Source: a virus. Taken from it: 64,000 bases of DNA. The stretch covers positions 1 to 64,000 of the IMG/VR virus record IMGVR_UViG_3300043466_003540, one strand, 5' to 3'. Shown in pieces: positions 30,282 to 53,431 of the stretch. Each line of letters opens with the position of its first letter. Position 1 is the stretch's first letter. The notes under the pieces were generated by a model. It saw only the letters and a program-made list of their open reading frames with translations, was not told where the DNA came from and searched no databases. Made by a program: the position numbers and the translations under genes.

Positions 30282-30860
30282 ATGAATAACAAAGAGGTAT
30301 TTTCTAAAATTTACAAAGAAGACCTCTGGCATGGGGGCTCTGGAGCTGGCTCTAAGATAGAAAATGTAAAAGAGTATGTAGATGTTTTACAAAAATATAT
30401 TAATAAACCTGAAATAAAAACTGTGCTTGACCTTGGATGTGGGGACTGGCAGTTCTCTAAGTTTCTTGATTTATCATCTGTTTCATACCTAGGTGTAGAT
30501 GTTGTAGAGTCTGTCATAGAGTCTAACAATAATTCTTACTCTGCTTCTAACGTAGAGTTTATTAGTCATGACATAACTACTTATGAAATACCAAAAGTAG
30601 ATTTAATAATATGCAAAGATGTTCTGCAGCATTTATGTAATAAAGATGTGATTGACATACTTGTAAAAATTATTAAGTCTTCAAAATTTTCTTTAGTAAC
30701 TAATGATTTTGCCTCGGCAGATTTAGTTAATAGAGATATTAATAATGGTGACTATAGATGCCTAGATTTGTCGCTGAGCCCATTTAATTTAGATGTAACT
30801 ACTCTTTTAGAGTTTGAAAGGGTTGGTTGGAAACCAAAACGTACTGTAACTCTTAACTAA
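30282..30860 (+). CDS. Class I SAM-dependent methyltransferase
   Basis: A 192-residue protein. I chose the ATG at 30282, one base after the epimerase stop, over an upstream in-frame start at 30234 inside that gene. The SAM motif is TVLDLGCGDWQ, then an acidic strand end (YLGVDVVES), and a DLIICKDVLQHL post-I/II region. It may methylate a sugar. The gene converges on the - strand block and its last eight bases overlap the 3' end of the opposing gene. Confidence 0.8.
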   Translation: MNNKEVFSKIYKEDLWHGGSGAGSKIENVKEYVDVLQKYINKPEIKTVLDLGCGDWQFSKFLDLSSVSYLGVDVVESVIESNNNSYSASNVEFISHDITTYEIPKVDLIICKDVLQHLCNKDVIDILVKIIKSSKFSLVTNDFASADLVNRDINNGDYRCLDLSLSPFNLDVTTLLEFERVGWKPKRTVTLN

Positions 30861-31719
30861 AATTAATAATAGATTTATATTTTTCTGTTCTATTTTTTTC
30901 ATCTTTTAGATAGTTAAACCACCATCTAGAGGCCCCAAGATTTTCACTTAATGTGAGTACGCCATATATAGTTCTATTGTCTATGTACTGAGGTATCCCT
31001 TTGTCTCTGGCAGAGTTAGAAAAAACCATGTACTCCCAGCGGTCTGACTCCTCTAGGTAAGTAAGTTCAGAGAGATGCTCTCTTTTAATTAGGTAGGTGC
31101 AGTGAACGCACATGCACTCAATTAGTCCTTTTACCTCTTGATTTAAAATTTTGTAGTAAACATCTTCTGCAATAATTGAACCAAAGTCATCTACCTTGTC
31201 ATGATAGTTTGAGTAATACATACTCATGTGACCTTCTCGCTTAGCAGCCTCTACAGGAGTATCAGCATTTTCACCGAAAGCAACCGCGTATCTTAAAAAT
31301 GGGGCAACTATAGGTAGGTCTAGTTTGACTAATTCTTTGAGTGTTTCTGGGAACAAAAAGTTATCTATATCTACTACAAAGTAGTATTCACAATCTGTGA
31401 GTAAGGCTTGGTTCATACTCTCTTGACGAATTTTTCCTAAGACTCTAAACCTTTCACCATTCCAGAAATGAACATCGTACTGCTCTACTTTTTGTGGAAC
31501 ATCTTCGCTGTTGTAGATTAGCCCTTTATATTTATCACCGTACTCTTCTATCCACTCTTCTAAAAGCCCTTTTGTGTTATCTGTGTTGTTATTAGTTCTG
31601 ATGTAGATAAATATGTTTTCTTTAGGGTAGTCCCAGTTGTTGAGACTTTCTAGAAATAATGGAAGAACGGCTTCTTTTTGTTTTACAAGAAGGGCTAAAA
31701 ATACATTTGGCTGAGTCAT
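30853..31719 (-). CDS. Glycosyltransferase, GT-A type
   Basis: A 288-residue protein with FLALLVKQKEAVLPLFLESL at the N-terminus, a nucleotide-binding region (IYIRTNNNTDNT) and a DxD-type motif in YFVVDIDNFLFPE. It resembles the Anp1/procollagen galactosyltransferase-like part of the GT-A world more than classical GT2, but I cannot fix the family. It ends the 5.6 kb - strand glycosyltransferase block and overlaps the next gene upstream by one base (TAATG-type coupling). Confidence 0.72.
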   Translation of the reverse strand: MTQPNVFLALLVKQKEAVLPLFLESLNNWDYPKENIFIYIRTNNNTDNTKGLLEEWIEEYGDKYKGLIYNSEDVPQKVEQYDVHFWNGERFRVLGKIRQESMNQALLTDCEYYFVVDIDNFLFPETLKELVKLDLPIVAPFLRYAVAFGENADTPVEAAKREGHMSMYYSNYHDKVDDFGSIIAEDVYYKILNQEVKGLIECMCVHCTYLIKREHLSELTYLEESDRWEYMVFSNSARDKGIPQYIDNRTIYGVLTLSENLGASRWWFNYLKDEKNRTEKYKSIINFS

Positions 31720-32759
31720 TAGATACCTTGCTTATAAAAAACCATATTATTTATTAATCTGGCATCCGTTGGATTTCCTATAAGTGCTTTTTCTCCATAC
31801 TCTACTGCCTTTGCTTTATCACCTAGGTAATGAGCAGATAGCGCTCTCATATCATCTAGCATCCAATTCCATAGAGCTTCAGATGATAGGTAGTGATTAG
31901 TTGGTTGGCATGTAGCAACTAGTTTGCAAGTTTCCCACACCCCACCCCAATCACTTTGTTCATAGTAGCAACGTACTTTTTCATAATACGCCTCACCGCA
32001 TGGGTCGATAGAAATTGCTTTATCTGCCCACGTGTGTGCTTCTTCAAGTCTTCCTAAATTTCTGCATGCTTCAGATGCAAATCTACATACTGCTGCACGT
32101 TCCACGAACCAGTCTTTACTAAAATCACTAACTTTTTGAGCGCTACTAATTACTAAATCCCACATCTTGTAATAGTAATATTCACGACACAGATATACCC
32201 AAATTCGATGGTCTTCACCAAACTCTTTACTTGCAGCAATTAACATTGTCATATATTGCCCGCGAGATTTTGTATTATCTGGTTTGTGGTACATCTTGGT
32301 AGGAATAGTGCAACTCATCAAAGGTGTATCAAGGGAAGGAACAAATACTTCATGAATAGGATATTTCCAATACACACCATCTCTAGCGTGCAAGCGAGCA
32401 CCTAGCCAAGTATGACCAGTGTCAAAATCACACCAACCTTTGTTAGCCCCTGGCGCCCAGTGCTCTTTTACTTTTTTAAAAAAGTCTTTATCTACTGTTT
32501 CATCTAAATCTAAACTTAGACACACATCTATATCTGCTGGTAATAAACTCTGAGCAGTATTTCTTGCAACATCAAATCTCCAAGGCTTTACACTTATTTC
32601 ATAGACAATAATCCCATTGCTTCTTAATATCTCTACTGTTTTATCTGTAGAGCCTGTGTCACAGACTAATCTAAAGTCTGCATCTTTAGTGGTGTCTGCC
32701 CAACGCTGAGCGTGCTTCTCCTCGTTCAGGGCAATAGCGTATGCGGCAACTTTAATCAT
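31719..32759 (-). CDS. GT2-type glycosyltransferase with C-terminal TPR-like repeats
   Basis: A 346-residue protein. Residues 1 to about 180 are a GT2 domain (AYAIALNEEKHAQRWAD, CDTGSTDKTVEIL, LSLDLDETVD with the DxD). The remaining part has helical repeats such as EEAHTWADKAISIDPCG and KAVEYGEKALIGNP, typical of TPR. GT2-TPR proteins often glycosylate peptides or proteins, as in phage- and spore-surface systems. It is translationally linked to the gene at 30853. Confidence 0.78.
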   Translation of the reverse strand: MIKVAAYAIALNEEKHAQRWADTTKDADFRLVCDTGSTDKTVEILRSNGIIVYEISVKPWRFDVARNTAQSLLPADIDVCLSLDLDETVDKDFFKKVKEHWAPGANKGWCDFDTGHTWLGARLHARDGVYWKYPIHEVFVPSLDTPLMSCTIPTKMYHKPDNTKSRGQYMTMLIAASKEFGEDHRIWVYLCREYYYYKMWDLVISSAQKVSDFSKDWFVERAAVCRFASEACRNLGRLEEAHTWADKAISIDPCGEAYYEKVRCYYEQSDWGGVWETCKLVATCQPTNHYLSSEALWNWMLDDMRALSAHYLGDKAKAVEYGEKALIGNPTDARLINNMVFYKQGI

Positions 32760-32792
32760 AAGCCTAATTTATCATGATAAATTTATAAATGT

Positions 32793-33476
32793 CTATAATT
32801 CTGGATTGCGTATAAGATCTTTTGGGAATATCATTACTTTCTTATGATGAGCAACTTGAACTCTAGGATCTAAAAATATTTTATATCCAGCTTCTTGAGC
32901 CTTTCTGCACCAAGAAAAATCTTCAGCAAGTGGGACTAAAAACTCTTCTCCGTTACTACCATGTATTTTTGAAAAATGAGTCTCAAACCAAGGTCTTTTT
33001 ATATTTTCAAAAACACCTTGTTTTACACAAATAAACCCAAATCCAGCAGATGATATCTCACGATATTCTTGTTCTGTAATAATTTTATAAGCAGAAATTT
33101 CTTGTCCTGCAGGAGTGTCTATTGCAAACATAGGAGTACCAAATTGATCTATATATATTCCTGAAACTATATCTTTATCTGAACTATACATATTCATAAA
33201 ATCAGCTATAGTCCAAGATATATCAGAATCTATCCAAAAGAATTTATCATATGTAACTTCTCCTCTAACTGGAGATTGATTAAATGCGTCTAAAAATTTA
33301 GAACCCATTGCTGTAGCTTCTCTAGCAGTACTTACAGCAGAAGAGTACTCATTTAAAAATAAATAGCTAATTCCAACGTCTTTAAGATAAGTTATTGTTG
33401 AAATTAAACTTTTTACATACTCTGCCTCCATTGATCTTCCTGGAGTTGCAATAAGAACATTAATGTGTTTTTTCAT
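32793..33476 (-). CDS. GT-A glycosyltransferase (paralogue of the genes at 35005 and 35687)
   Basis: A 227-residue protein with NVLIATPGRSMEAEYVKSL, an FFWIDSDISWT DxD motif, and a C-terminal WCRKAQEAGYKIFLDP and VAHHKKV segment. It matches the protein at 35005 along most of its length, including the order of these motifs. The three paralogues probably arose by duplication and then diverged to different acceptors or donors. Confidence 0.76.
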   Translation of the reverse strand: MKKHINVLIATPGRSMEAEYVKSLISTITYLKDVGISYLFLNEYSSAVSTAREATAMGSKFLDAFNQSPVRGEVTYDKFFWIDSDISWTIADFMNMYSSDKDIVSGIYIDQFGTPMFAIDTPAGQEISAYKIITEQEYREISSAGFGFICVKQGVFENIKRPWFETHFSKIHGSNGEEFLVPLAEDFSWCRKAQEAGYKIFLDPRVQVAHHKKVMIFPKDLIRNPEL

Positions 33477-33511
33477 GTATTTTACCTAAACTATTAGTTA
33501 ATAACATAGAA

Positions 33512-34030
33512 CTAATTACCAGTAAACTTTGCGATAAATGCTCCTGTAAATTGAAAAAGTTTATAGTCAATAATACTATGAAACTTTTCTAAGACTAGCT
33601 CAGAGTTCCAGTCTTCTTCCACATGAATCTCATATGGATTATTATTGAAAGCCCCTTGTGGCATATGAGTTATAGGTATAGATATTATCGCGTACTTTGC
33701 TTGTTTAGAACATCTATTCCAAAGTTGAATAGCATCATTTGCTGACATGTGCTCTAAAACATCACCAAAAATTACTATATCATAATCAAAATTATCGTAT
33801 ACTCTTACGTCTTTTTGATAAACATTATCATATATTGATTTTAAATTAAAATGATCTATATATGGTTGCCAAACTTCTATTGCATCAATAACAATGTTAG
33901 AATTTATAAATGATTTTATAAATTCTCCATAAGTTCCTTCTCCAGCACCAACGTCTAAAATATTTTTAGGTTTAATCTGCTTAATTTTCTTAAGCAGCCA
34001 ACTTTTATTTTCTGGGTGTGAAGAAGGCAT
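33512..34030 (-). CDS. SAM-dependent methyltransferase
   Basis: A 172-residue protein with NILDVGAGEGTYGEFI (SAM motif I), an acidic strand end after VIDAIEVW, and YDIVIFGDVLEHM (motif II). The size is small but the core is complete. It sits between glycosyltransferase genes, overlapping the start of its upstream neighbour's stop, so a sugar methyltransferase or capping role is likely. Confidence 0.8.
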   Translation of the reverse strand: MPSSHPENKSWLLKKIKQIKPKNILDVGAGEGTYGEFIKSFINSNIVIDAIEVWQPYIDHFNLKSIYDNVYQKDVRVYDNFDYDIVIFGDVLEHMSANDAIQLWNRCSKQAKYAIISIPITHMPQGAFNNNPYEIHVEEDWNSELVLEKFHSIIDYKLFQFTGAFIAKFTGN

Positions 34031-34950
34031 TATTTAACCTGATCTGGAAGAGATTCTAATATCTTAATCCACTCATATTTTCTAGTTTCCCAGCTATAGT
34101 GTTTATTAAAAAAATCAGATTGCTCTTTAATAAATTCTTGATTTTCAAGTGACCAATAATTATTTATAGTCTCTTCTAGTGCCTTGGCGTAATTTGCAAT
34201 AAGAATTTTGGCATCTGCTTGAATTGGAACTAGCTTTGCATATATAGAACCTGTTTCTGGTAATCCTCCAATGTTTGTTGTAACTAAGTTACATCCAGCT
34301 GCGCCTGCTTCTATCATGGAAAGACAGGCTGTCTCTTCAAAAATACAAGGATAAGCAAAGATATGAGCTTTTTGAAGAGCTAAGATAACATCTTTATGTG
34401 GAGCATATCCGATATAGTTAACATTTTTCATACTGCGAGCGCGATCAAAAAGTTGCTCATATTTATTACCTTCATACTCTACATATTCTTGGCCATATAT
34501 CTGAGTAGAAGAATAAATATCTAATTCTATATCATCTCTGTTTAAAAGCTCAAAAGAGTCAAGTAAAACATCTAAACCACGATATGGCATAGAAGTATAT
34601 ATAAGTTTTATTTTTTCTTTTGGCTTTTCTACATAACTAATTGATTCTATTGCATTTCTAACTACATACGCATTTTCTAGATGAATTTGATGAATATAAC
34701 GAAATTTTTCATGCTGCCAGTGTGAGACATACACATATGCATCTATTAATCTATTAAAATATTTATCTTTAATTCCTTGAACAACACTTTGATTCGCGGG
34801 GATATGCTGCCATAAGATATTGCGCTTATCCATATCAACTAAATCTCTATAACACTTAGAATTAATGATGTTTACATTATACTTATCAAGATCAACATAT
34901 TTTGCTAGGTTTTCTAGCATAATATCTTCTCCACCTTTAGGGTCAATCAT
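34030..34950 (-). CDS. GT4-type glycosyltransferase with a short N-terminus
   Basis: A 306-residue protein with the GT-B/GT4 C-terminal half (KLIYTSMPYRGLDVLLDSF, YPCIFEETACLSMIEAGAAGC with the E-x7-E type pair). The protein begins at MIDPKGGEDIML, right at the glycine turn, so the first beta strand normally found before it is missing. The start is supported by a GAGAGGA ribosome-binding site 10 bases upstream, and an in-frame upstream start is not obvious. It may be active in a shortened form. Confidence 0.78.
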   Translation of the reverse strand: MIDPKGGEDIMLENLAKYVDLDKYNVNIINSKCYRDLVDMDKRNILWQHIPANQSVVQGIKDKYFNRLIDAYVYVSHWQHEKFRYIHQIHLENAYVVRNAIESISYVEKPKEKIKLIYTSMPYRGLDVLLDSFELLNRDDIELDIYSSTQIYGQEYVEYEGNKYEQLFDRARSMKNVNYIGYAPHKDVILALQKAHIFAYPCIFEETACLSMIEAGAAGCNLVTTNIGGLPETGSIYAKLVPIQADAKILIANYAKALEETINNYWSLENQEFIKEQSDFFNKHYSWETRKYEWIKILESLPDQVK

Positions 34951-35004
34951 CTAGTTTCCTCTCTAAACTTTAGTATTTATTATTTACTTAAAATAACTTT
35001 AGTG

Positions 35005-35682
35005 CTACTTTGGCCACTCAATTTTAACTTGCTTGTGATGATTTACTCTAACAAGTGGATCTACCCATATAGTAACTCCCATCCTGTGAACTTTTTCACA
35101 CCAGGAAAGATCTTCTCCCATTAAAGGAAATTTATACTCTACAGCACCAGTTTCTTCATTTATTACTTCTACTTCCGTTTGTGAAAACCAAGGACGCTTT
35201 ATTTTTTCAAATATACCTTGTTTTACAGCTAAAAATCCAAAACCAACTCCTCTTACAGCAAAAGGTTTTTTTCTTGACATTATTTCTTCTTTTGTCATCC
35301 CTCCACGTAAAACCTTTGGGTACACTGTCACTTCTTCATTTGCAAGCATGTAACAGCCAGAAACAACTTCAACGTCATTACTAAGTAACTTATGTACGTC
35401 CTCTGGTTCCCACTCGATGTCGGAGTCGATCCAAAGTATTCGATCGTAACTATATAATCCATGGCCTGGACGAGAGTCATTAGGATCTTGATACCCTAGT
35501 CCTCCGATAGTTTTCTCTCTTGCGTCAGCAACTAAAGATGAGTACTCAGTTAAAAAATTCCAAGTAATTTGGTTTTGATCAAAAAAGTAAATAGTTTTTG
35601 CAAGACTACGCACATAAGCTTGTTGCATTGAGTGCCCAGGTGTGGCTATAAGTACATTAAAATGAGGTATTTGTGTGTCCAT
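35005..35682 (-). CDS. GT-A glycosyltransferase (paralogue of the gene at 32793)
   Basis: A 225-residue protein. I chose the ATG at 35682 (MDTQIPHF), which follows the previous stop and has GGAGG about 12 bases upstream. A GTG at 35712 would add 10 residues and overlap the upstream gene. Motifs are NVLIATPGHSMQQAYVRSL, RILWIDSDIEWEPED (DxD) and a terminal WCEKVHRMGVTIWVDP. Order and spacing match the gene at 32793, so these are clear paralogues. Confidence 0.76.
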   Translation of the reverse strand: MDTQIPHFNVLIATPGHSMQQAYVRSLAKTIYFFDQNQITWNFLTEYSSLVADAREKTIGGLGYQDPNDSRPGHGLYSYDRILWIDSDIEWEPEDVHKLLSNDVEVVSGCYMLANEEVTVYPKVLRGGMTKEEIMSRKKPFAVRGVGFGFLAVKQGIFEKIKRPWFSQTEVEVINEETGAVEYKFPLMGEDLSWCEKVHRMGVTIWVDPLVRVNHHKQVKIEWPK

Positions 35683-35686
35683 AAAT

Positions 35687-36442
35687 TTAGTTATCCTCCG
35701 ATATATTTCCACCTTTAAAAGTGTAAGTTCCTACATGGTCTAAGACTATTGTTGGGTCAACGTATACTTTTCCACCAATATTTTGCCAACGACGACAAAA
35801 CGTGTAGTCCTCGCTGAGATACCTTCCATTATCAATCATGGTATCAAAAATAGCGTATTTTGACATTCCTTTCTGAGACTCTTCATCATAAACCTCTGGA
35901 ATATAGCGTGTTTCAGGATAACTTTTTATAAGTTTTTCTATAACTGGTCTTTTAATAAGCATAAAACCAGTAGCACCATCATATATTTCTAATAATCCAT
36001 TTTCAGTTGTGCTAGAAGTACTAGTTAACTTATTTACACCTGAAGAATAGCGAATTGCATTAGACTGTAGCGTTTTAACATCATTTGACGCAGAGCTAGC
36101 CATTTTTTGCCAATCTATCATTTTTGTAGGATACGCTCCAGTAATAACGTCTTTATTCATGCTAATCATCTTAAATACATCGTCTGGATTAAAGTTTATA
36201 TCAGCATCAATAAACATTAGGTGGGTTGCTGGAGTTTGTAGAAAAGTAAAAACAAGATCATTTCTTGCTCTTGTGATTAAACTTTCATTAGAGCGTGTAA
36301 AGTATCCTAACTTCATTCCATACTGTGCTGACTTAGAAACTAGTTGAAGTAAGGACTGTACGTATTTTTCATTTACTAGTCCACCGTAGCACGGTGTCGC
36401 GACAAACAAAGTTGTACTACGTATAGTGTCCAATTTTAGCAT
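35687..36442 (-). CDS. GT-A glycosyltransferase (third paralogue)
   Basis: A 251-residue protein with LFVATPCYGGLVNEKYVQSL, HLMFIDADINFNPDD (DxD), GATGFMLIKRPV and a terminal FCRRWQNIGGKVYVDP. It shares motif order with the proteins at 32793 and 35005 but is more distant. It is the first gene of the glycosyltransferase block on the - strand, 39 bases after the adhesin gene at 36482, so it is probably read from the same long transcript. Confidence 0.76.
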   Translation of the reverse strand: MLKLDTIRSTTLFVATPCYGGLVNEKYVQSLLQLVSKSAQYGMKLGYFTRSNESLITRARNDLVFTFLQTPATHLMFIDADINFNPDDVFKMISMNKDVITGAYPTKMIDWQKMASSASNDVKTLQSNAIRYSSGVNKLTSTSSTTENGLLEIYDGATGFMLIKRPVIEKLIKSYPETRYIPEVYDEESQKGMSKYAIFDTMIDNGRYLSEDYTFCRRWQNIGGKVYVDPTIVLDHVGTYTFKGGNISEDN

Positions 36443-36481: not shown

Positions 36482-39298
36482 TTAGGTTTTAATCCAAGGA
36501 GTGTATCCTACTGGAGCCTCTATAGGAGTAAGTACATGGTAAGTTTTAGGGATAGATTTGCTGTTTTTAGCCATGTAAAGTGACTGGTTTGATCCTCCTG
36601 CGATAATCCAAGAGTTATTCCCATACGCTACCCTAGAAACAGGCTCAAGTGTGTCCGCGCCTGCGTACGAGTATACCTGTGTTGTCCAGTTTATTCCATC
36701 TAAAGACGTTCTTACTCCTCCATTTAAGCTTACCAAAATAAATATTCCATCTCCGTAGGCTATTGAAGAAATACCTAACGTTATAGGAATGTTAGAGTTT
36801 TGCGTGTTCCACGTCACACCGTTATCCGTTGAGGTCCTTAGCGCTCCTCCTGCACCTCCTGCGGCCCACACACCATTTCCATATGCAACCGAGCTAATCG
36901 CACTGGTTCCAAACTGTGAAGTTTGCGTATTCCAGTTAAGCGCGTCAGTTGAAGTTCTTAACGTTCCACTAGCACCCACCGCAATGAAAGTTCCATTTCC
37001 ATAAGCAACTGCACATATAGTACTTGAACCAAATTGTGACGTCTGCGTATTCCAGTTAAGCGCGTCAGTCGAGGAGTGCAGCATACCTTGTATTCCTACA
37101 GCAACCCATACTCCATTTCCATACGCGACTGACTGGACAGCTGATGTGCCAAAGTTAGGTCCATAAGATCTCCAGTTTATAGTGTCAGTTGAGGAGCGCA
37201 GTTTTCCACTCGCACCTGCCGCAACAAAAATTCCATTTCCATATGCAACCGAGTTAATCCCACTTGTTCCAAACTCTGAAGTTTGTGTATTCCAGTTTAT
37301 AGTGTCAGTTGAGGTCCGCAGCGTTCCCCCCGCGCCTCCCAAGACCCACGTTCCGTTTGCATACGCAACGGCTACGATCGAACTTGTTCCAAACTGTGAC
37401 GTTTGCGTGTTCCAGGTCACACCGCCGTTTGTTGAAGTTCTTAACGTTCCTGCGCTTCCTCCCGCAACCCACGTGCCGTTACCATACGCAACAGCACTAA
37501 TTCCACTTGAACCGCCAAACTCTGAAGTTTGCGTATTCCAGTTAAGCGTGTCAGTTGAGGTCCGCAGTGTTCCTGCAAATCCTGTCGCTACCCACACACC
37601 ACCTCCATACCCAACTGCATCGATAGTAAGAGTACTTCCAAAATTAGTACCGTATCCTATCCAAGTTATAGCATTGTTAGTTGATGTTCTTGTAGTTCCA
37701 CCACTTCCTCCAAGTAACCAAGTTCCATTTCCGTACGCAACACCAAGAATATCACTTGTACCAAAGTTAGGAGTCTGAGTATTCCATGTTACACCGTTAT
37801 CAGTTGAGGTCCGTAGTCCTCCAGAAAAAGACGCTGCAGTCCACACACCATTACCATAAGAAACGGCGTTTAAACTACTTGTAGTATTAGAAGTACGCGT
37901 GGTCCACGTAACACCATCAGGTGAAGTTCTTATCGCTCCTCCTGCTCCTGTCGCTATAAAGACACCATTACCATAAGAAACGGCGTTTAAACTACTTGTA
38001 GTATTAGAAGTACGCGTGGTCCACGTAACACCGTTATTCGTTGAAGTTCTTATCGCTCCTCCTGCTCCTCCCACTACAAAGACACCATTACCATATGCAA
38101 CAGAGCGAATATCACTGGTTCCAAACGTTGACGTCTGCGTATTCCACGTCACACCGTTATTCGTTGAATTTCTTAACGCTCCACCCGCACCCACCGCTAC
38201 CCACGTGCCGTTGCCATACGCAATTGCACTAATTATACTAGTTCCAAACTGTGAAGTTTGCGTATTCCAGTTAAGCGTGTCAGTTGAGGTCCGCAGCGTT
38301 CCCCCTGCGCCTCCTACAACCCATACTCCATTTCCATACGCGACTGCATAAATAATACTTGAACCAAATTGTGACGTCTGCGTATTCCAGTTAAGCGCGT
38401 CAGTTGAAGTTCTTAACGTTCCACTCGCACCTCCAGCTACCCAGACACCGTTGCCGTACGCAACCGCAGATATGGCAGTTGCACCAAACTGATTTCCATG
38501 AGCGTTCCAAACAGTTATGTTTGTTGAAGTTCTTAACGTTCCTGCTTGTCCTCCAGCTACCCACGTGCCGTTTCCATACGTGATAGCACGAATTCCAGTT
38601 GTTCCAAACTGTGACGTTTGCGTGTTCCAGTTTATTGCATCAGTAGACGTTCTTAATACCGCCGAGTCTCCTCCCACTACAAAAACTCCATTACCATAGG
38701 CAACTGAAGAAATTGAAGTTCCACCGAACTGTGAAGTTTGCGTATTCCACGTCACACCGTTATCCGTTGAGGTCCTTAGCGCTCCTCCTGCGCCTACCGC
38801 AACATAAATTCCATTACCATAGGCAGTTGAAAAAATAGTACTTGAACCAAAATTAACTCCGTAATTAATCCAGTTTACCGCATTATCTAGTGATGTTTTT
38901 GCATTTCCTCCGTCTCCCACCAAAAGCCAAGCTCCATTACCATATGCAGCAGAACAAATTCCATTTGCACCGAACTGTGAAGTTTGCGTATTCCACGTCA
39001 CACCGTTATCCGTTGAGGTCCTTAGCGCTCCTCCTGCACCTGCTGCTATATATGTCCCATTACCATAAGCAACAGAATTAATAATACTTAAGCCAATAGT
39101 ATGATTAACTGAAGACCAAGTAGAGTAATAAGGAATTATTTTACCAAGTCTAGAATTTGAGTTAATAGTTTGAGTAGTACTTAAATTTAACCAGCCTGGT
39201 CCTGGTGAACCTAATGAACTTTTTCTATATATAACACTACCAGTCTTGTACACTACTTCTTTTTTAGAATCTTGATTATTCATTTTATTTTCATCCAT
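36482..39298 (-). CDS. Giant repeat protein: 21 Asp-box blades, three predicted seven-bladed propellers
   Basis: A 938-residue protein. After a 70-residue N-terminal part (YKTGSVIYRKSSLG, GPGWLNL), there are 21 copies of a ~39-residue unit of the type SAVAYGNGTWVAGG-x-GTLRTSTDNGVTWNTQTSQFG, then a 30-residue tail (TPWIKT end). STDNGVTW is an Asp box (BNR), known from sialidases, Vps10 and HCF136-like propellers. Twenty-one is a multiple of seven, the usual blade number. The first start is ATG at 39298, overlapping the previous gene by 19 bases. Probably a virion or cell-surface adhesin. Confidence 0.7.
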   Translation of the reverse strand: MDENKMNNQDSKKEVVYKTGSVIYRKSSLGSPGPGWLNLSTTQTINSNSRLGKIIPYYSTWSSVNHTIGLSIINSVAYGNGTYIAAGAGGALRTSTDNGVTWNTQTSQFGANGICSAAYGNGAWLLVGDGGNAKTSLDNAVNWINYGVNFGSSTIFSTAYGNGIYVAVGAGGALRTSTDNGVTWNTQTSQFGGTSISSVAYGNGVFVVGGDSAVLRTSTDAINWNTQTSQFGTTGIRAITYGNGTWVAGGQAGTLRTSTNITVWNAHGNQFGATAISAVAYGNGVWVAGGASGTLRTSTDALNWNTQTSQFGSSIIYAVAYGNGVWVVGGAGGTLRTSTDTLNWNTQTSQFGTSIISAIAYGNGTWVAVGAGGALRNSTNNGVTWNTQTSTFGTSDIRSVAYGNGVFVVGGAGGAIRTSTNNGVTWTTRTSNTTSSLNAVSYGNGVFIATGAGGAIRTSPDGVTWTTRTSNTTSSLNAVSYGNGVWTAASFSGGLRTSTDNGVTWNTQTPNFGTSDILGVAYGNGTWLLGGSGGTTRTSTNNAITWIGYGTNFGSTLTIDAVGYGGGVWVATGFAGTLRTSTDTLNWNTQTSEFGGSSGISAVAYGNGTWVAGGSAGTLRTSTNGGVTWNTQTSQFGTSSIVAVAYANGTWVLGGAGGTLRTSTDTINWNTQTSEFGTSGINSVAYGNGIFVAAGASGKLRSSTDTINWRSYGPNFGTSAVQSVAYGNGVWVAVGIQGMLHSSTDALNWNTQTSQFGSSTICAVAYGNGTFIAVGASGTLRTSTDALNWNTQTSQFGTSAISSVAYGNGVWAAGGAGGALRTSTDNGVTWNTQNSNIPITLGISSIAYGDGIFILVSLNGGVRTSLDGINWTTQVYSYAGADTLEPVSRVAYGNNSWIIAGGSNQSLYMAKNSKSIPKTYHVLTPIEAPVGYTPWIKT
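36580..39090 (-). repeat. Near-identical 117-bp coding repeats
   Basis: The blade unit is about 117 bases. A block of about 70 bases at 37846 is repeated identically at 37963, exactly 117 bases later. Other blades share long exact runs with the genes at 39280 and 40341. Confidence 0.85.
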
Positions 39299-40353
39299 CC
39301 ATATACACCATTACCGAGATATGTATTAGGTGTTTTAAAAGTAGTTAATATTTTTGTTGTTGCAATTACGCCCAGTCCAACTACAACCCATGCATTATTA
39401 CCATAAGCTGCATCGTAAACTATCGAATTTATATTATTTAATGATATCTGCGTATTCCAGTTAAGTGCATCCGTAGAAATCATAATTCCTTGACTGTTTA
39501 TTCCTCCTAATAACCACTTATTATCTGCGTATGTTAAAGCATAACTGGCTATTTGTCCTGATGTATACGTTTTTGGGATAGACCAGTTTATAAGGTTAGT
39601 AGAAGTTTGTATAGTATCATCTGCGTTAATTGAAGCTACTGCCCAAATTCCATTTCCATACGCTATTTTAGAAATTCCTGTTACTAAATAGTTTAAAGTT
39701 GTTTGCGTGTTCCACGTCACACCGTTATCAGTTGAGGTACGTAATCCTCCACCTACACCTCCAAAAACCCACGTGCCGTTTCCGTAGGCAACAGAGCATA
39801 TAGTTGCGCTGTAATTAGATGTCTGTGTTGTCCACGTCACACCGTTATCCGTTGATGTTCTTACACTTGCTGAACTACCGACAGCAATCCACGCGCCATT
39901 ACCATACGCAACAGCACATATGGCTGTAAAAAATGTAGAAGTTCGCGTAGTCCATGTAATACCATTTTCTGATGTTCTTAAAGCTGTACCCGCGCCTACA
40001 GCAACGAAAGTTCCATTTCCATAAGCAATTGAAAAAATAGTACTTGAACCAAACTGTGAAGTTTGCGTATTCCAGTTAAGTTCATCTGTTGACGTACGCA
40101 GTACTCCTGATGCACCTCCAGCTACCCAGACACCGTTGCCGTACGCAACCGCACATATATTTAGTCCACTTCCATCATTTAAAAATTTTAAATTTGCTAA
40201 AGAAGAATTAGAAAGTTTATTAGAAAAATTACTATCAACTTTAACTACGCTTCCATCAAGTTTTACCCATGAACTTCCTGGTGAGTCAATACCAAATACT
40301 ATTTCACCTGTATCATAGTAGTTTTTTCTTATATTTTTATTCATTGTGTCCAT
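39280..40353 (-). CDS. Asp-box repeat protein: seven blades, one predicted propeller
   Basis: A 357-residue protein with an N-terminal segment (YYDTGEIVFGIDSPGSSW) similar to that of the gene at 36482, then exactly seven YGNG-type blades and a short C-terminus (YGWMKIK). The first four carry the standard Asp box; the last three are more divergent. It looks like the smallest member of the set, a single seven-bladed propeller. Its ATG (MDTMNKN, alternative MNKN three codons on) overlaps the gene before by 13 bases, so translation is coupled. Confidence 0.72.
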   Translation of the reverse strand: MDTMNKNIRKNYYDTGEIVFGIDSPGSSWVKLDGSVVKVDSNFSNKLSNSSLANLKFLNDGSGLNICAVAYGNGVWVAGGASGVLRTSTDELNWNTQTSQFGSSTIFSIAYGNGTFVAVGAGTALRTSENGITWTTRTSTFFTAICAVAYGNGAWIAVGSSASVRTSTDNGVTWTTQTSNYSATICSVAYGNGTWVFGGVGGGLRTSTDNGVTWNTQTTLNYLVTGISKIAYGNGIWAVASINADDTIQTSTNLINWSIPKTYTSGQIASYALTYADNKWLLGGINSQGIMISTDALNWNTQISLNNINSIVYDAAYGNNAWVVVGLGVIATTKILTTFKTPNTYLGNGVYGWMKIK

Positions 40354-43300
40354 CCAACAATAGATAGATTTGGGTCTATAGGTTGATTATAGCCCACTAA
40401 TAAGTCAGATCTGTACAAGTGCCCTTGAGTAAGTGCTACCCATGTATTATTTCCATAGGCAACTGCGTTAAAGCTGCTTGAGCCAGTATAATGTTGTGTA
40501 TTCCATGTCACACCGTTATCCGTTGATGTTCTTATCTTATTGACAGGCTCAGCACTACTTACAATTGTCCATAAGCCATCTCCATAGGCAACTGATTGAA
40601 CTTTACCATTTTTAAATCCTGATTCTCTAGTTGTCCAATTAACTGCATCACTTGAAATACTAATTGTACCAAATGTATCTCCTCCTGCTATCCACACGCC
40701 ATTTCCATATGCAATAGAGCGAATATCACTGGTTCCAAACGTTGACGTCTGCGTATTCCACGTCACACCGTTATTCGTTGAGGTCCGCAGTGTTCCACCT
40801 GCGCCTACCGCTGTCCACGTGCCGTTACCATATGCAACAGAGCGAATTATACTAGATCCAAACTGTGATGTTTGTTGCGTCCAGACTATTAGATCAGTTG
40901 AAGTTTTTAAAGTTCCACCATCACCAGCTGCTACGTACACTCCATTGCCGTAGGCAGAAGACTGAATAGTAGAAGATCCAAATTGAATTCCATAAGCATA
41001 CCAATTGAGTGCATCAGTAGATGTTCTTAACGCTCCACCCGCACCTGCTGCAGCAAAAATTCCATTTCCATATGCAACCGAGCTAATCGCACTGGTTCCA
41101 AACTGTGAAGTTTGCGTATTCCAGTTAAGCGCGTCAGTTGAAGTTCTTAACGTTCCACTCGCACCTCCAGCAACCCAAATTCCATTACTATAAGTAATTG
41201 ACTGGATTACAGCTCCACCAAACTGTGAAGTTTGCGTATTCCATGTTATCGCATTATCAGTTGAGGTCCGCAGCGTTCCCCCCGCGCCTCCCAAGACCCA
41301 CGTTCCGTTTGCATACGCAACAGCACTAATTCCACTTGATCCAAAGTTAGAAGTTCGTGTGGTCCAAAAAATTGAGTCAGTAGAAGAAAAAAGTTGACCA
41401 GAGCTGTTACCAGCTAAAAATATTCCATTACCATAAGATACAACGCATGTACTAGGAGAAGAAGAAAAATTTGAACCATGAGTGTACCAGTCTATAGCGT
41501 TACTTGAAATTCGCGTTGCAAAGTTAGCAGAAATTATAAATATACCATTTCCATAAGCAGATGCTGTTATGGTGCTACTACCTAATGGAGATGTTCTGGT
41601 AACCCATGTTAGTCCATCAGTAGAAGTTCTATAATTTCCACTAGACGCAGCAAGAAAAAATATTCCATTACCATAAAGTAAAGAGTTAATATTGTTAGCA
41701 CCGTAGTTAGATGCCTGCGTAGTCCACGTAACACCGTTATCCGTTGATGTTCTTATGCTGTTAGTTCCACCACTGGTAAATCCTCCTGCTACCCATGTGT
41801 TATTACCATAGGCAACTTTATCCAAACTACTTGTAGTATTAGAAGTACGCGTGGTCCACGTAACACCATCAGGTGAAGTTCTTATCGCTCCACCTATACC
41901 CACCGCAACAAAAATTCCATTTCCATATGCAACCGAGCTAATCCCACTTGAACCAAATTGTGACGTTTGCGTATTCCAGTTAAGCGCGTCAGTTGAAGTT
42001 CTTAACGTTCCACTCGCACCTCCAGCTACCCAGACACCGTTGCCGTACGCGACTGACTGGACAGCTGATGTGCCAAAGTTAGGTCCATATTGATACCACG
42101 TCACACCGTTATCCGTTGACGTTCTCATCATACCACTAGGTCCAGCAGCTACGAATAAACCGTTACCATATCCGATAGAGCTAATCACACTTGTACCAAA
42201 ACCAGTCTGTGTTGTCCACGTCACACCGTTATCCGTTGATGTTCTTATCATTCCTCCATTTCCTCCAGCTGCCCACGTGCCGTTGCCGTACGCGACTGAC
42301 TGGATTGCAGTTGTAGTATTAGAAGTACGCGTGGTCCACGTAACACCATCAGGTGAAGTTCTTATCGCTCCTCCTGCTCCTCCTGCTATAAAGACACCAT
42401 TTCCATATGCAACCGAGCTAATCGCACTGGTTCCAAACGTTGACGTCTGCGTGTTCCAGGTCACACCGCCGTTTGTTGAAGTTCTTAACGTTCCTGCTTG
42501 TCCTCCAGCTACCCAAGTGCCGTTTCCATATGCAATAGCGTTGATTCCAGTTGTTCCAAACTGTGAAGTTTGTGTATTCCAGATCACACCGTTATCCGTT
42601 GAGGTCCGCAGTGTTCCACCTGCGCCTACCGCTGTCCACGTGCCATTCCCATACGCAACCGCACATATAGTACTTGAACCAAAGTTAGAGGTCTGCAGTG
42701 TCCATGAAATTCCATCAACAGAGGTTCTTATTGAAGTTCCTGAAGTTGCCACCCAGACGCTGTTTCCAAAGGCAGAATATGTTACTCCACTTGGATTATG
42801 TCTTCTTTGCCAGTAAATTGAATCACTTGACGATATTAAGGCACTTGAAGTTCCAGCTACCCACGTGCCGCTACCGTATGCAACAGCGGATAAAGCTGCA
42901 GACGAGCCTAAGTCTATGGTTCCGTTATTTCTCCAAGTAGTACCATCATCAGTTGACGCTTGTATCACTCCACCCGTAATTGCAGCAACAAAAGTTCCAT
43001 TACCAAAACTTAATTGAATAGCTTGCTGCCCATTTAATCCAGCACTTTGCGTATCAGTCCAAGTAGCACCGTTGTCTGTTGATATAACGTATTGTCTATC
43101 ACCTGTGCCTGCATGTGAAACTAGCCAAACTCCATTTCCATATGCAATACTACATATACCTGTTCTATCTACTCCAACTAAATTCCAGTTTTGTGCACTA
43201 TCTGTTGAGGTCCGCAGAGCTCCGGCACTGTACCCTGCTATCCACACGCCATTTCCATACGCAACTGAATGAATAGTAGATGAGCCAGAACCAAGTTCTT

Positions 43301-44849
43301 TCCATTTTACAAGATTTCCAGTTGATATAGCCATAACACCTGAAGTTCCACCTACAACCCACAGTCCATTTCCATATGCAATTGATTGTAAACCACTTGA
43401 ACCTGAAAGTTTTATCGGAGGCATCGTTGAAACCCAGGTAACAGCGTTTGTAGATGTGCGCATAGATGGAGCGGAGCCTCCTAGCACAGCAAAAGTTCCA
43501 TTTCCATACGTAATAGATGTAAAAGTAGTTGTAGAAAAAGAGTTAGATGAAACCCACACTACGCCTGGGTTAGTTGATGATGAAATTGTACCTCCGTCTC
43601 CCGCCGCAACAAAAATTCCATTACCATACGCAATTGAAATGATACCGCTTGAACCAAACTGTGACGTTTGCGTGTTCCAGTTTATTGCATCAGTAGACGT
43701 TCTTAACGTTCCTGCGCTTCCTCCTGCAACCCAGACACCGTTGCCGTACGCAACGGCTGCAATAGCAGTTGCACCAAACTGTGAAGTTTGCGTGTTCCAT
43801 GTTAGTGCATCAGTAGACGTTCTTAACGTTCCTGCGCTTCCTACCGCAGCAAAAATTCCATTTCCATATGCAATGGATTGAATTAAAGTTGAACCAAACT
43901 GTGACGTTTGCGTGTTCCAGTTTATTGCATCAGTAGACGTTCTTAACGTTCCTGCGCTTCCTACCGCAGCAAAAATTCCATTTCCATATGCAACCGAGAA
44001 AATAGTAGTTGAACCAAACTGTGAAGTTTGCGTGTTCCATGTTAGTGCATCAGTAGACGTTCTTAACGTTCCACTTGCACCCACCGCGACCCACGTGCCG
44101 TTTCCGTATGCAATTGAAGTTATGGCAGTTGTGCCAAAGTTAGATCCGTATCCTCTCCACGTCACACCACTATCAGTAGATGTTCTTACTGCTCCACTAT
44201 TACCTCCTGCAACCCAGATACCATTACCGTAAAAAATAGAGTTTAAAGTACTTGTATTTGAAGTAGTTGGTTGACTCCATGTGTATAAATTATCTGAGCG
44301 TAACAGTATTCCAAGTACACCTGTCGCTACCCACACACCATTTCCATACGCGACTGCATGAATACCTGAAGAAGTATTAGTTCCAATTGCACTCCATGTA
44401 GTCTCTACAGTTGATACTCTAAAGAATCCAGAAGCACCTGCCGCTACAAAAACGCCATTTCCATATGAAAGTGTATTAATGTTATTAGCGGTAGAAGTAT
44501 AAGATGATGGAACATTCCATACTGTCCCACCGTTAGTTGATATGAATAAACTTCCTTGTCCCCCACCAGCTACCCACACTCCGTTTCCATATGTAACAGA
44601 AGATAGTACTTGAGTCTTACTTATTGTTTCTCTAGCCCAAAGCTGGCCTGTTGCTACAGAAGACTTACTTGATCTTTTACTAAAAGTATATGACTCATCA
44701 ACAGAAGACAATGAAAAATCCTCGGGTTCAAATCCTTTAAGAAAAAAGCGTAAATAACCTTGTCTTTCATTCTGTAAAGTTGTAGGGTTATACTCACCGT
44801 TAACTATTTCGGTGTTATTATTAAATCCATCTTCCCTACCATAATTCAT
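40341..44849 (-). CDS. Giant repeat protein: 35 Asp-box blades, five predicted seven-bladed propellers
   Basis: A 1502-residue protein, the largest in the window. An 80-residue N-terminal region (YLRFFLKGFEPEDFS) is followed by 35 copies of the YGNG-type blade, with the best conserved ones at about residues 240-400 and in the middle of the protein. Thirty-five is five times seven. The final blade carries YGNNTW, as do the last blades of the other two proteins (YGNN), which suggests a conserved closing or cap blade. There is no signal peptide, so export, if any, is with the virion. Confidence 0.72.
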   Translation of the reverse strand: MNYGREDGFNNNTEIVNGEYNPTTLQNERQGYLRFFLKGFEPEDFSLSSVDESYTFSKRSSKSSVATGQLWARETISKTQVLSSVTYGNGVWVAGGGQGSLFISTNGGTVWNVPSSYTSTANNINTLSYGNGVFVAAGASGFFRVSTVETTWSAIGTNTSSGIHAVAYGNGVWVATGVLGILLRSDNLYTWSQPTTSNTSTLNSIFYGNGIWVAGGNSGAVRTSTDSGVTWRGYGSNFGTTAITSIAYGNGTWVAVGASGTLRTSTDALTWNTQTSQFGSTTIFSVAYGNGIFAAVGSAGTLRTSTDAINWNTQTSQFGSTLIQSIAYGNGIFAAVGSAGTLRTSTDALTWNTQTSQFGATAIAAVAYGNGVWVAGGSAGTLRTSTDAINWNTQTSQFGSSGIISIAYGNGIFVAAGDGGTISSSTNPGVVWVSSNSFSTTTFTSITYGNGTFAVLGGSAPSMRTSTNAVTWVSTMPPIKLSGSSGLQSIAYGNGLWVVGGTSGVMAISTGNLVKWKELGSGSSTIHSVAYGNGVWIAGYSAGALRTSTDSAQNWNLVGVDRTGICSIAYGNGVWLVSHAGTGDRQYVISTDNGATWTDTQSAGLNGQQAIQLSFGNGTFVAAITGGVIQASTDDGTTWRNNGTIDLGSSAALSAVAYGSGTWVAGTSSALISSSDSIYWQRRHNPSGVTYSAFGNSVWVATSGTSIRTSVDGISWTLQTSNFGSSTICAVAYGNGTWTAVGAGGTLRTSTDNGVIWNTQTSQFGTTGINAIAYGNGTWVAGGQAGTLRTSTNGGVTWNTQTSTFGTSAISSVAYGNGVFIAGGAGGAIRTSPDGVTWTTRTSNTTTAIQSVAYGNGTWAAGGNGGMIRTSTDNGVTWTTQTGFGTSVISSIGYGNGLFVAAGPSGMMRTSTDNGVTWYQYGPNFGTSAVQSVAYGNGVWVAGGASGTLRTSTDALNWNTQTSQFGSSGISSVAYGNGIFVAVGIGGAIRTSPDGVTWTTRTSNTTSSLDKVAYGNNTWVAGGFTSGGTNSIRTSTDNGVTWTTQASNYGANNINSLLYGNGIFFLAASSGNYRTSTDGLTWVTRTSPLGSSTITASAYGNGIFIISANFATRISSNAIDWYTHGSNFSSSPSTCVVSYGNGIFLAGNSSGQLFSSTDSIFWTTRTSNFGSSGISAVAYANGTWVLGGAGGTLRTSTDNAITWNTQTSQFGGAVIQSITYSNGIWVAGGASGTLRTSTDALNWNTQTSQFGTSAISSVAYGNGIFAAAGAGGALRTSTDALNWYAYGIQFGSSTIQSSAYGNGVYVAAGDGGTLKTSTDLIVWTQQTSQFGSSIIRSVAYGNGTWTAVGAGGTLRTSTNNGVTWNTQTSTFGTSDIRSIAYGNGVWIAGGDTFGTISISSDAVNWTTRESGFKNGKVQSVAYGDGLWTIVSSAEPVNKIRTSTDNGVTWNTQHYTGSSSFNAVAYGNNTWVALTQGHLYRSDLLVGYNQPIDPNLSIVGWTQ
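40440..44610 (-). repeat. Tandem Asp-box coding repeats shared with the gene at 36482
   Basis: A run of more than 50 bases ending in the Asp-box region (for example 41831-41885, 42311-42365 and 37881-37935) is nearly the same in both genes. Exact shared blocks within the gene occur around 43660-43720 and 43898-43960. Confidence 0.8.
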
Positions 44850-44868: not shown

Positions 44869-45249
44869 TTAAAAGTCTCCACCAAAAGCTATAACGTTAA
44901 AAGATTCTGAATTATTAGTTGTTGCTCTAAGTGAATGCCCAGAAGGTAACATAAAATTATTATAGGTAGATGTGGATGAAAACACAGCTTGAGTAGTAGA
45001 TGGAGTAACAGCAGTCACCATAACTTCTTGAAGTAAATAGTATGTTGAACCAGTGTATACCCATAGACGTACTACTCCCGCGGTTGTAGTTCCCGTCGAG
45101 ACGATGTTGATCTCGTCGATGCGTGAGCCGCTTGCTCCTGCGGTGAACACGGTACCTACGTTGGTAGGTGAGGTACGCGAAGTGTCGGCTGTTGCAATAT
45201 TAGCTGCCGAGACGCGAACAGTCGCGGCAAAATTTGGTGCTGCTGCCAT
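44869..45249 (-). CDS. Small virion-type structural protein
   Basis: A 126-residue beta-rich protein (TGTTTAGVVRLWVYTGSTYYLL, LPSGHSLRATTNNSESFNV). This type is frequent beside phage fibre genes and may be a fibre tip, trimer or decoration subunit. It is placed between the 1502-aa protein and the collagen-like fibres. No enzyme motif. Confidence 0.6.
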   Translation of the reverse strand: MAAAPNFAATVRVSAANIATADTSRTSPTNVGTVFTAGASGSRIDEINIVSTGTTTAGVVRLWVYTGSTYYLLQEVMVTAVTPSTTQAVFSSTSTYNNFMLPSGHSLRATTNNSESFNVIAFGGDF

Positions 45250-45274: not shown

Positions 45275-46567
<1,293 letters not shown>

Positions 46568-46627
46568 ATTACTCTCTTACTTCAGCAAAAGGATGGCACT
46601 ACTATACTACAAATTTGAACTTTCTAT

Positions 46628-46667
46628 ATAAAAAAACTGCCCACCTTCGTGAAAAGATGGGCAGTTT
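46628..46667 (-). terminator. Intrinsic terminator of the collagen-like gene at 46684
   Basis: On the - strand, AAACTGCCCA (58-67 read back) and TGGGCAGTTT (34-43) form a 10-bp stem with a 14-base loop. A U run follows (A run at 46628-46636 on the + strand). It lies 17 bases after the stop codon of the upstream gene. Confidence 0.88.
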
Positions 46668-46683
46668 CTACCTAATATTTAGG

Positions 46684-48831
<2,148 letters not shown>

Positions 48832-48924
48832 TCATTTCACTCGAGTGGGATGATTCCCAAAGCCAATTTTACCCTAAATAAAAAAGGTGATTAAAATAAA
48901 ATTAAACTCTAAATTCTTATTAAA

Positions 48925-51114
<2,190 letters not shown>

Positions 51115-51130
51115 TTTTTAACAGCTCCTT

Positions 51131-53431
<2,301 letters not shown>

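What the first reader, a model, noticed from the sequence alone, without database searches (positions are those of the whole stretch)
36482..44849. Three phage proteins with 7, 21 and 35 Asp-box blades: one, three and five seven-bladed propellers
Counting the YGNG-type blade signature by eye gives 7 (gene at 39280), 21 (36482) and 35 (40341). All three are multiples of seven, the classic propeller blade number, in the ratio 1:3:5. Each protein has a distinct N-terminus and ends with a YGNN-type last blade, which looks like a conserved closing blade. The genes overlap each other and sit next to fibre genes. Asp-box propellers are known in sialidases and other surface proteins, but a coupled set of one, three and five propellers in a phage is not something I know of. 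They may form modular receptor-binding arms of different length.
Basis: partly seen in the sequence, partly recalled or inferred. Interest (0 to 1): 0.92.

Follow-up and report, generated by a model that had tools for sequence, protein, structure and literature searches.

The report
Phage arms of seven-bladed propellers
Three neighbouring genes of an uncultured tailed phage encode proteins with exactly 35, 7 and 21 copies of a propeller blade, most likely five, one and three seven-bladed rings at the virion surface, and relatives show that such blade arrays tend to change in whole rings of seven.

Summary
The counts are right: 21 (A, 36482-39298), 7 (B, 39280-40353) and 35 (C, 40341-44849) Asp-box blades, found again with a profile built only from other phages and bacteria. 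Among 174 other complete blade proteins the commonest totals are 7 (82) and 14 (26). Of the 48 with 8 or more blades, 30 are multiples of seven (p about 2e-14).

AlphaFold2 gives B a confident fold (pLDDT 84, pTM 0.82) that matches seven-bladed propellers such as Ycf48. It could not resolve A (pLDDT 61), and C was too long to run. For A and C the rings are therefore inferred.

The best support is comparative. Two syntenic phages carry A with matching end caps but only 7 blades, 14 fewer. Linkered relatives come in groups of exactly seven; one protein has 63 blades, 9 x 7. Similarity within A and C shows no period of seven, and near-identical blades are shared between A and C at arbitrary offsets, so blades move singly while totals stay at 7n.

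Cautions: an orthologue of C has a nine-blade internal period, and A and C carry no mark at ring boundaries. The end caps are related to phage tail-collar domains, which favours a receptor-binding appendage. New variant of a known kind.

The parts
40341..44849 (-). Gene C: 1502 aa; N-cap (about 1-77), 35 consecutive Asp-box blades of 36-45 aa without linkers, C-cap ...VGWTQ; first gene of the overlapping trio
   Evidence: An AAGGAG-like site precedes its ATG. 35 blades by an independent profile.
39280..40353 (-). Gene B: 357 aa; collar-like N-cap (1-55), seven blades, C-cap ...GWMKIK; single seven-bladed propeller
   Evidence: AF2 pLDDT 84, pTM 0.82. PDB matches to Ycf48 and WD40 seven-bladed propellers. 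DSSP gives one strand at 56-58 before blade 1 and three strands in blade 7, i.e. 1+3 closure.
36482..39298 (-). Gene A: 938 aa; N-cap (1-60), 21 consecutive blades, C-cap ...GYTPWIKT
   Evidence: AF2 shows up to four strands per blade but no reliable global arrangement. Orthologues have 7 blades.
44869..45249 (-). Conserved 126-aa protein just upstream of C (77% identical in the syntenic relative L405)
   Evidence: no PHROG match.
45275..53431 (-). Four collagen-repeat tail-fibre-like genes upstream of the trio on the same strand
   Evidence: Pfam Collagen and PHROG tail fibre matches.
30853..36442 (-). Downstream gene block with glycosyltransferases and phrog_1574 paralogues, syntenic with the trio in L093 and L405 (60-88% aa identity)

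Best explanation
The three proteins are tandem seven-bladed Asp-box beta-propellers carried inside a small tail-collar-like cap: one ring in B, three in A, five in C. The chain starts with a lone outer (D) strand, runs through full ABCD blades and ends with an ABC half-blade, so first and last blade close on each other by the usual 1+3 'Velcro', and the number of blades must be a multiple of the ring size. Near-identical blades recombine within and between the neighbouring genes, but only arrays with complete rings persist, so arms grow or shrink mainly by whole propellers. The proteins most likely sit on the virion next to the collagen-like fibres and bind host-surface glycans or proteins; ring number sets reach and avidity. 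Shown: counts, the predicted B fold, family ring size of seven, blade exchange, A orthologues differing by 14, relationship of the caps of A and B to the collar domain of relatives. Inferred: the rings in A and C, virion location, receptor binding, the selective filter.
For: Independent profile counts 21/7/35. Family totals 7:82, 14:26, 21:4; among totals of 8 or more, 30/48 are multiples of 7, p about 2e-14. Linkered relatives fall into groups of exactly 7, including 9 x 7 = 63 blades in one 4446-aa protein, and several lose the Asp-box exactly at each 7th blade. Syntenic A orthologues L093/L321 and L405 have matching caps and 7 blades against 21. B folds confidently and matches seven-bladed propellers; profile match to Ycf48, E 2e-6. 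Blade stretches of 99% DNA identity between A and C at offsets 11 and 16, others at 9, 10, 24, with no period of 7. With the propeller left out, the joined caps of relatives match Pfam Collar across the join: L063 4.9e-7 to 1.2e-9, L065 1.9e-4 to 3e-7. Window caps match those caps by hhalign, score 48 against at most 15 in shuffles and 24 reversed.
Against: The AF2 model of A has pLDDT 61 and pTM 0.39 and does not show three rings; Foldseek finds multi-propeller proteins but with global TM of only about 0.2. C was not modelled. A and C keep Asp-boxes at the expected ring boundaries, whereas marked relatives lose them. The orthologue of C in L405 (27 blades by profile, 28 by eye) has a nine-blade internal period, which suggests nine-bladed rings or seven-bladed rings plus two-blade spacers. 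Totals such as 6, 8, 9 and 13 also occur; inspection shows that many, but not all, are detection misses. No experiment links these proteins to the virion, and the collar relationship of the window's own caps rests on a profile comparison with cap sequences that I joined.
Confidence: 0.68

Rival explanations
1. The arrays in A and C are propellers, but with mixed or other ring sizes (for example nine-bladed rings, or seven-bladed rings joined by two-blade spacers), and 21 and 35 are multiples of seven partly by chance.
For: The C orthologue in L405 has a clear nine-blade period in blade length and sequence and loses the Asp-box at blades 1, 10 and 19 and in its last blade (read by eye); relative L183 has one nine-blade array; A and C show no boundary marks.
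Against: Seven dominates the family, and unbroken arrays of 14 and 21 are far commoner than their neighbours. A differs from its orthologues by exactly 14. Chance for A and C both being multiples of seven is about 1/49 even before the family evidence.
Confidence: 0.2
2. A and C form one closed super-ring or an open superhelical solenoid of 21 and 35 blades.
For: Asp-boxes are intact up to the last blade, as in a single ring with n-1 boxes; AF2 does not separate rings.
Against: A super-ring or solenoid gives no reason for multiples of seven. The largest Asp-box ring described in the review read here has ten blades (PMC2716378). GH74 shows that an uninterrupted Asp-box stretch can form two seven-bladed rings (PMC2716378).
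Confidence: 0.05
3. The proteins are propellers with a role other than binding the host, such as an enzyme or an intracellular factor (they would be annotated 'photosystem II assembly factor').
For: The nearest solved relatives are Ycf48 assembly factors; a relative in phage DSL-LC01 carries that annotation.
Against: Caps related to a tail-collar domain; position between collagen-type fibre genes and surface-sugar genes; viral fold matches include baseplate and tail-fibre proteins; no sialidase RIP motif.
Confidence: 0.12

Closest known systems
Highly repetitive beta-propellers amplified from single blades (Pereira and Lupas 2022, PMC9218822; solved example 2ymu)
   Same: Near-identical consecutive blades, amplification by single blades, blade numbers peaking at 7 and 14 for WD40; 2ymu is among the best fold matches of A.
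   Different: Those are mostly cellular proteins and the word phage does not occur in the paper's text; here the arrays are Asp-box blades in a phage gene cluster with blade exchange between neighbouring genes.
GH74 xyloglucanases (tandem seven-bladed Asp-box propellers)
   Same: An uninterrupted stretch of Asp-boxes folding into two seven-bladed rings (PMC2716378); fold matches of A.
   Different: Only two rings and enzymes; here up to five presumed rings, very similar blades, collar-type caps.
Ycf48 / photosystem II assembly factor propellers
   Same: Single seven-bladed Asp-box propeller; best sequence-profile and among the best fold matches of B.
   Different: Cellular assembly factor; no collar caps and no tandem arrays.
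Phage K1F endosialidase (GH58)
   Same: Phage protein with an Asp-box propeller (PMC2716378).
   Different: Six-bladed enzyme; A, B and C have no RIP motif.
Actinomycetia phage DSL-LC01 protein WJZ48562
   Same: Asp-box propeller gene among collagen-like fibre genes of a freshwater phage whose primase is 67% identical over the 289 residues compared.
   Different: One propeller only: six blades detected and a gap that fits a seventh.

Membership tests
Asp-box beta-propeller | Repeated S-x-D-x-G-x-x-W type boxes between strands 3 and 4 of blades | tested here: met
   20, 6 and 32 strict boxes in A, B and C; BNR and DUF6242 profile matches, BNR below its curated cut-off.
Asp-box beta-propeller | Closed toroidal fold of four-stranded blades with 1+3 closure | tested here: met
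   B only: AF2 pLDDT 84, pTM 0.82, seven blades, single N-terminal strand and three-stranded last blade. For A inconclusive; C not modelled.
Tandem seven-bladed propeller protein | More than one seven-bladed ring in one chain | tested here: inconclusive
   Totals 21 and 35, family statistics and A orthologues agree; no resolved structure of A or C.
Highly repetitive propeller (Pereira and Lupas) | Median blade identity above 60% | tested here: not met
   Mean protein identity between blades over A, B and C is 46%; single pairs reach 90% at DNA level. The mechanism looks alike, the threshold is missed.
Phage tail-collar domain protein (PF07484) | Collar profile matched at the curated cut-off | tested here: not met
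   Window caps give no Pfam match. Relatives L063 and L065 exceed the cut-off when their caps are joined; the window caps are related to such caps by hhalign.
Sialidase (GH33/GH58) | Catalytic arginines including the RIP motif | tested here: not met
   No RIP motif in A, B or C.
Phage receptor-binding protein | Present in the virion and binds the host surface | not testable with these tools
   Needs proteomics and binding tests.

The most novel reading that the evidence does not exclude
A ring-quantised recombination system for receptor-binding arms: neighbouring phage genes exchange single near-identical blades at any phase, but closure of seven-bladed rings inside a collar domain lets only whole-ring changes survive, giving arms of one, three and five propellers from one cluster.
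Probability: 0.4. Interest if true: 0.72.

Novelty: new variant of a known kind. Interest (0 to 1): 0.56.

Why it matters
If A and C are chains of seven-bladed rings, phages have a way to lengthen receptor-binding arms in fixed steps using one 40-residue building block, and relatives already show 1, 2, 3 and 9 rings. It offers a natural test of how propeller ring size is set and kept while blades are shuffled, and a route to multivalent binders of defined length. It also suggests that many phage proteins annotated as hypothetical, DUF6242 or 'photosystem II assembly factor' are surface propellers.

Tried and rejected
(1) Sequence period of seven inside A and C as proof of ring duplication: absent, so cassette duplication by sevens is rejected as the recent mode. 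(2) The C orthologue's 28 blades as proof of 4 x 7: set aside, because its internal period is nine. (3) AF2 of the 21-blade protein with a 10-sequence alignment: low confidence, not used for ring claims. (4) Sialidase reading: no RIP motif. (5) Assembly artefact: the same arrays in three other contigs. (6) Off-multiple totals in relatives: inspected one by one; many are detection misses or false last blades, but L183 (9), L052 (8) and L295 (13) look real. (7) Solved relatives of C by sequence alone: none. (8) Paper searches for Asp-box propellers in phage tail fibres or collar domains: no paper held all the terms.

Full report
WHAT IS THERE. The window is the first 64 kb of an 85,269-base virus record. 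It carries siphovirus-type tail genes on the plus strand (tape measure at 5162-8035), DNA polymerase and helicase, and on the minus strand a block of four collagen-repeat fibre genes (45275-53431), a 126-aa gene, then the trio C (40341-44849), B (39280-40353) and A (36482-39298), followed by glycosyltransferase-type genes (30853-36442). The trio overlaps by 13 and 19 bp.

COUNTS. Motif and spacing analysis gives 35 blades in C, 7 in B and 21 in A, with spacings of 36-45 residues and no linkers. A profile built only from other loci gives the same numbers. The arrays are 99.99-100% identical in three other metagenome contigs.

FOLD. B has an AF2 model with pLDDT 84 and pTM 0.82. Its strands show one N-terminal strand (56-58), six blades with the usual strand order and a last blade with three strands, i.e. 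the 1+3 closure that a review describes for nearly all Asp-box propellers (PMC2716378). Foldseek matches Ycf48 and WD40 seven-bladed propellers over about 300 residues (TM by target up to 0.74), and the family profile matches Ycf48 sequences. For A the model (pLDDT 61, pTM 0.39) shows repeated antiparallel strands, up to four per blade, but no reliable global shape. Its Foldseek list is headed by multi-propeller proteins (LRP2, the highly repetitive 2ymu, GH74, DDB1) with global TM near 0.2, which supports blades, not their grouping.

IS SEVEN REAL? Three pattern scans of public collections and one protein scan gave 174 complete, non-redundant blade proteins from 146 other loci. Totals: 7 (82), 14 (26), 21 (4), 6 (30), with few others. 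Among totals of 8 or more, 30 of 48 are multiples of seven (p about 2e-14); among unbroken arrays of 8 or more, 19 of 31 (p about 2e-9). These tests treat proteins as independent, which related ones are not fully. Many off-multiples have a missed divergent blade or a false end blade. Where linkers exist they mostly fall after every seventh blade; one 4446-aa protein carries nine such groups, 63 blades, and many arrays lose the Asp-box exactly at each seventh blade, as expected if strand 4 of that blade comes from the start of the ring.

ORTHOLOGUES. L093 and L321 (two assemblies, 99.9% identical) and L405 are syntenic relatives: the neighbouring genes are 60-88% identical in protein. In both lineages A has matching caps (43-62% identity in the N-cap) but 7 blades against 21, and B has 7. 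C in L405 has 27 blades by profile and one more by eye, 28 in all, against 35. That protein, however, has a clear nine-blade period, with blades 1, 10 and 19 and the last one lacking the Asp-box and blades 8, 17 and 26 carrying an insertion. I read this as three nine-bladed rings or three seven-bladed rings with two-blade spacers, and I do not count it as support for 4 x 7. Another phage (L404) has a trio with 28, 21 and 21 blades (19 found by profile plus two by eye in one of them), the 28 with a period of 14.

HOW IT EVOLVES. Within A, B and C no lag of seven is favoured (same position mod 7: 60.5% DNA identity; others: 60.1%). Stretches of about 95-275 bp at 80-99% identity link A and C at offsets such as 2, 4, 10, 11, 13 and 16 blades. 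Blades therefore move one or a few at a time and at any phase, yet totals settle on 7n. Selection for closed rings is the simplest reason; this step is inferred.

CAPS. Relatives such as L063 match the Pfam tail-collar domain in their N-terminal cap. When N- and C-caps are joined with the propeller left out, the match becomes stronger and runs across the join (L063 4.9e-7 to 1.2e-9; L065 1.9e-4 to 3e-7). So the propeller appears to sit inside a collar domain there. The window's own caps have no Pfam match, but the profile of the B and A caps matches those caps (hhalign score 48; shuffles at most 15; reversed 24). An insertion needs both ends of the array to meet, which the D-first, ABC-last layout provides.

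FUNCTION. The most likely role is a set of surface-binding arms of different length on the virion, beside collagen-type fibres. Viral fold matches of B include baseplate, short tail fibre and outer capsid proteins. No sialidase motif was found. Virion location and ligand are not shown.

COMPARISON. Asp-box propellers, tandem seven-bladed rings (GH74) and highly repetitive propellers with peaks at 7 and 14 are known (PMC2716378, PMC9218822), and Asp-box propellers occur in phages. What I did not find described is a phage cluster with one, three and five presumed rings, blade exchange between the neighbouring genes and collar-type caps. Clusters of two to four propeller genes with 7, 14, 21 or 28 blades are recurrent in the loci fetched here.

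Noticed in passing
L403 (minus strand; contig IMGVR_UViG_3300048576_000363): A single 4446-aa phage ORF with 63 Asp-box blades in nine groups of exactly seven separated by linkers; a group of four rings and a group of five rings are separated by about 1,330 residues of other sequence.
   Followed up: partly
L405:603-4319: Orthologue of C with a nine-blade internal period; blades 8, 17 and 26 carry an insertion and blades 1, 10 and 19 lack the Asp-box, as does the last blade by eye.
   Followed up: partly
window 32793-36442: Two genes of the phrog_1574 family (35687-36442, 32793-33476) and a further paralogue by BLAST (35005-35712), with a glycosyltransferase among them, conserved in order with the propeller genes in L093 and L405.
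   Followed up: no
window 45275-53431: Four successive collagen-repeat fibre genes upstream of the propeller genes; phage DSL-LC01 also combines collagen-like genes with one Asp-box propeller.
   Followed up: no
L212 and L252 (bacterial genomes): Lipoprotein-like bacterial proteins with 20 detected blades and a last lone A strand, which suggests a different closure of a 21-blade array.
   Followed up: no
L404 (contig IMGVR_UViG_3300034356_002390): Three adjacent propeller genes with 28, 21 and 21 blades; the 28-blade array has a period of 14.
   Followed up: partly
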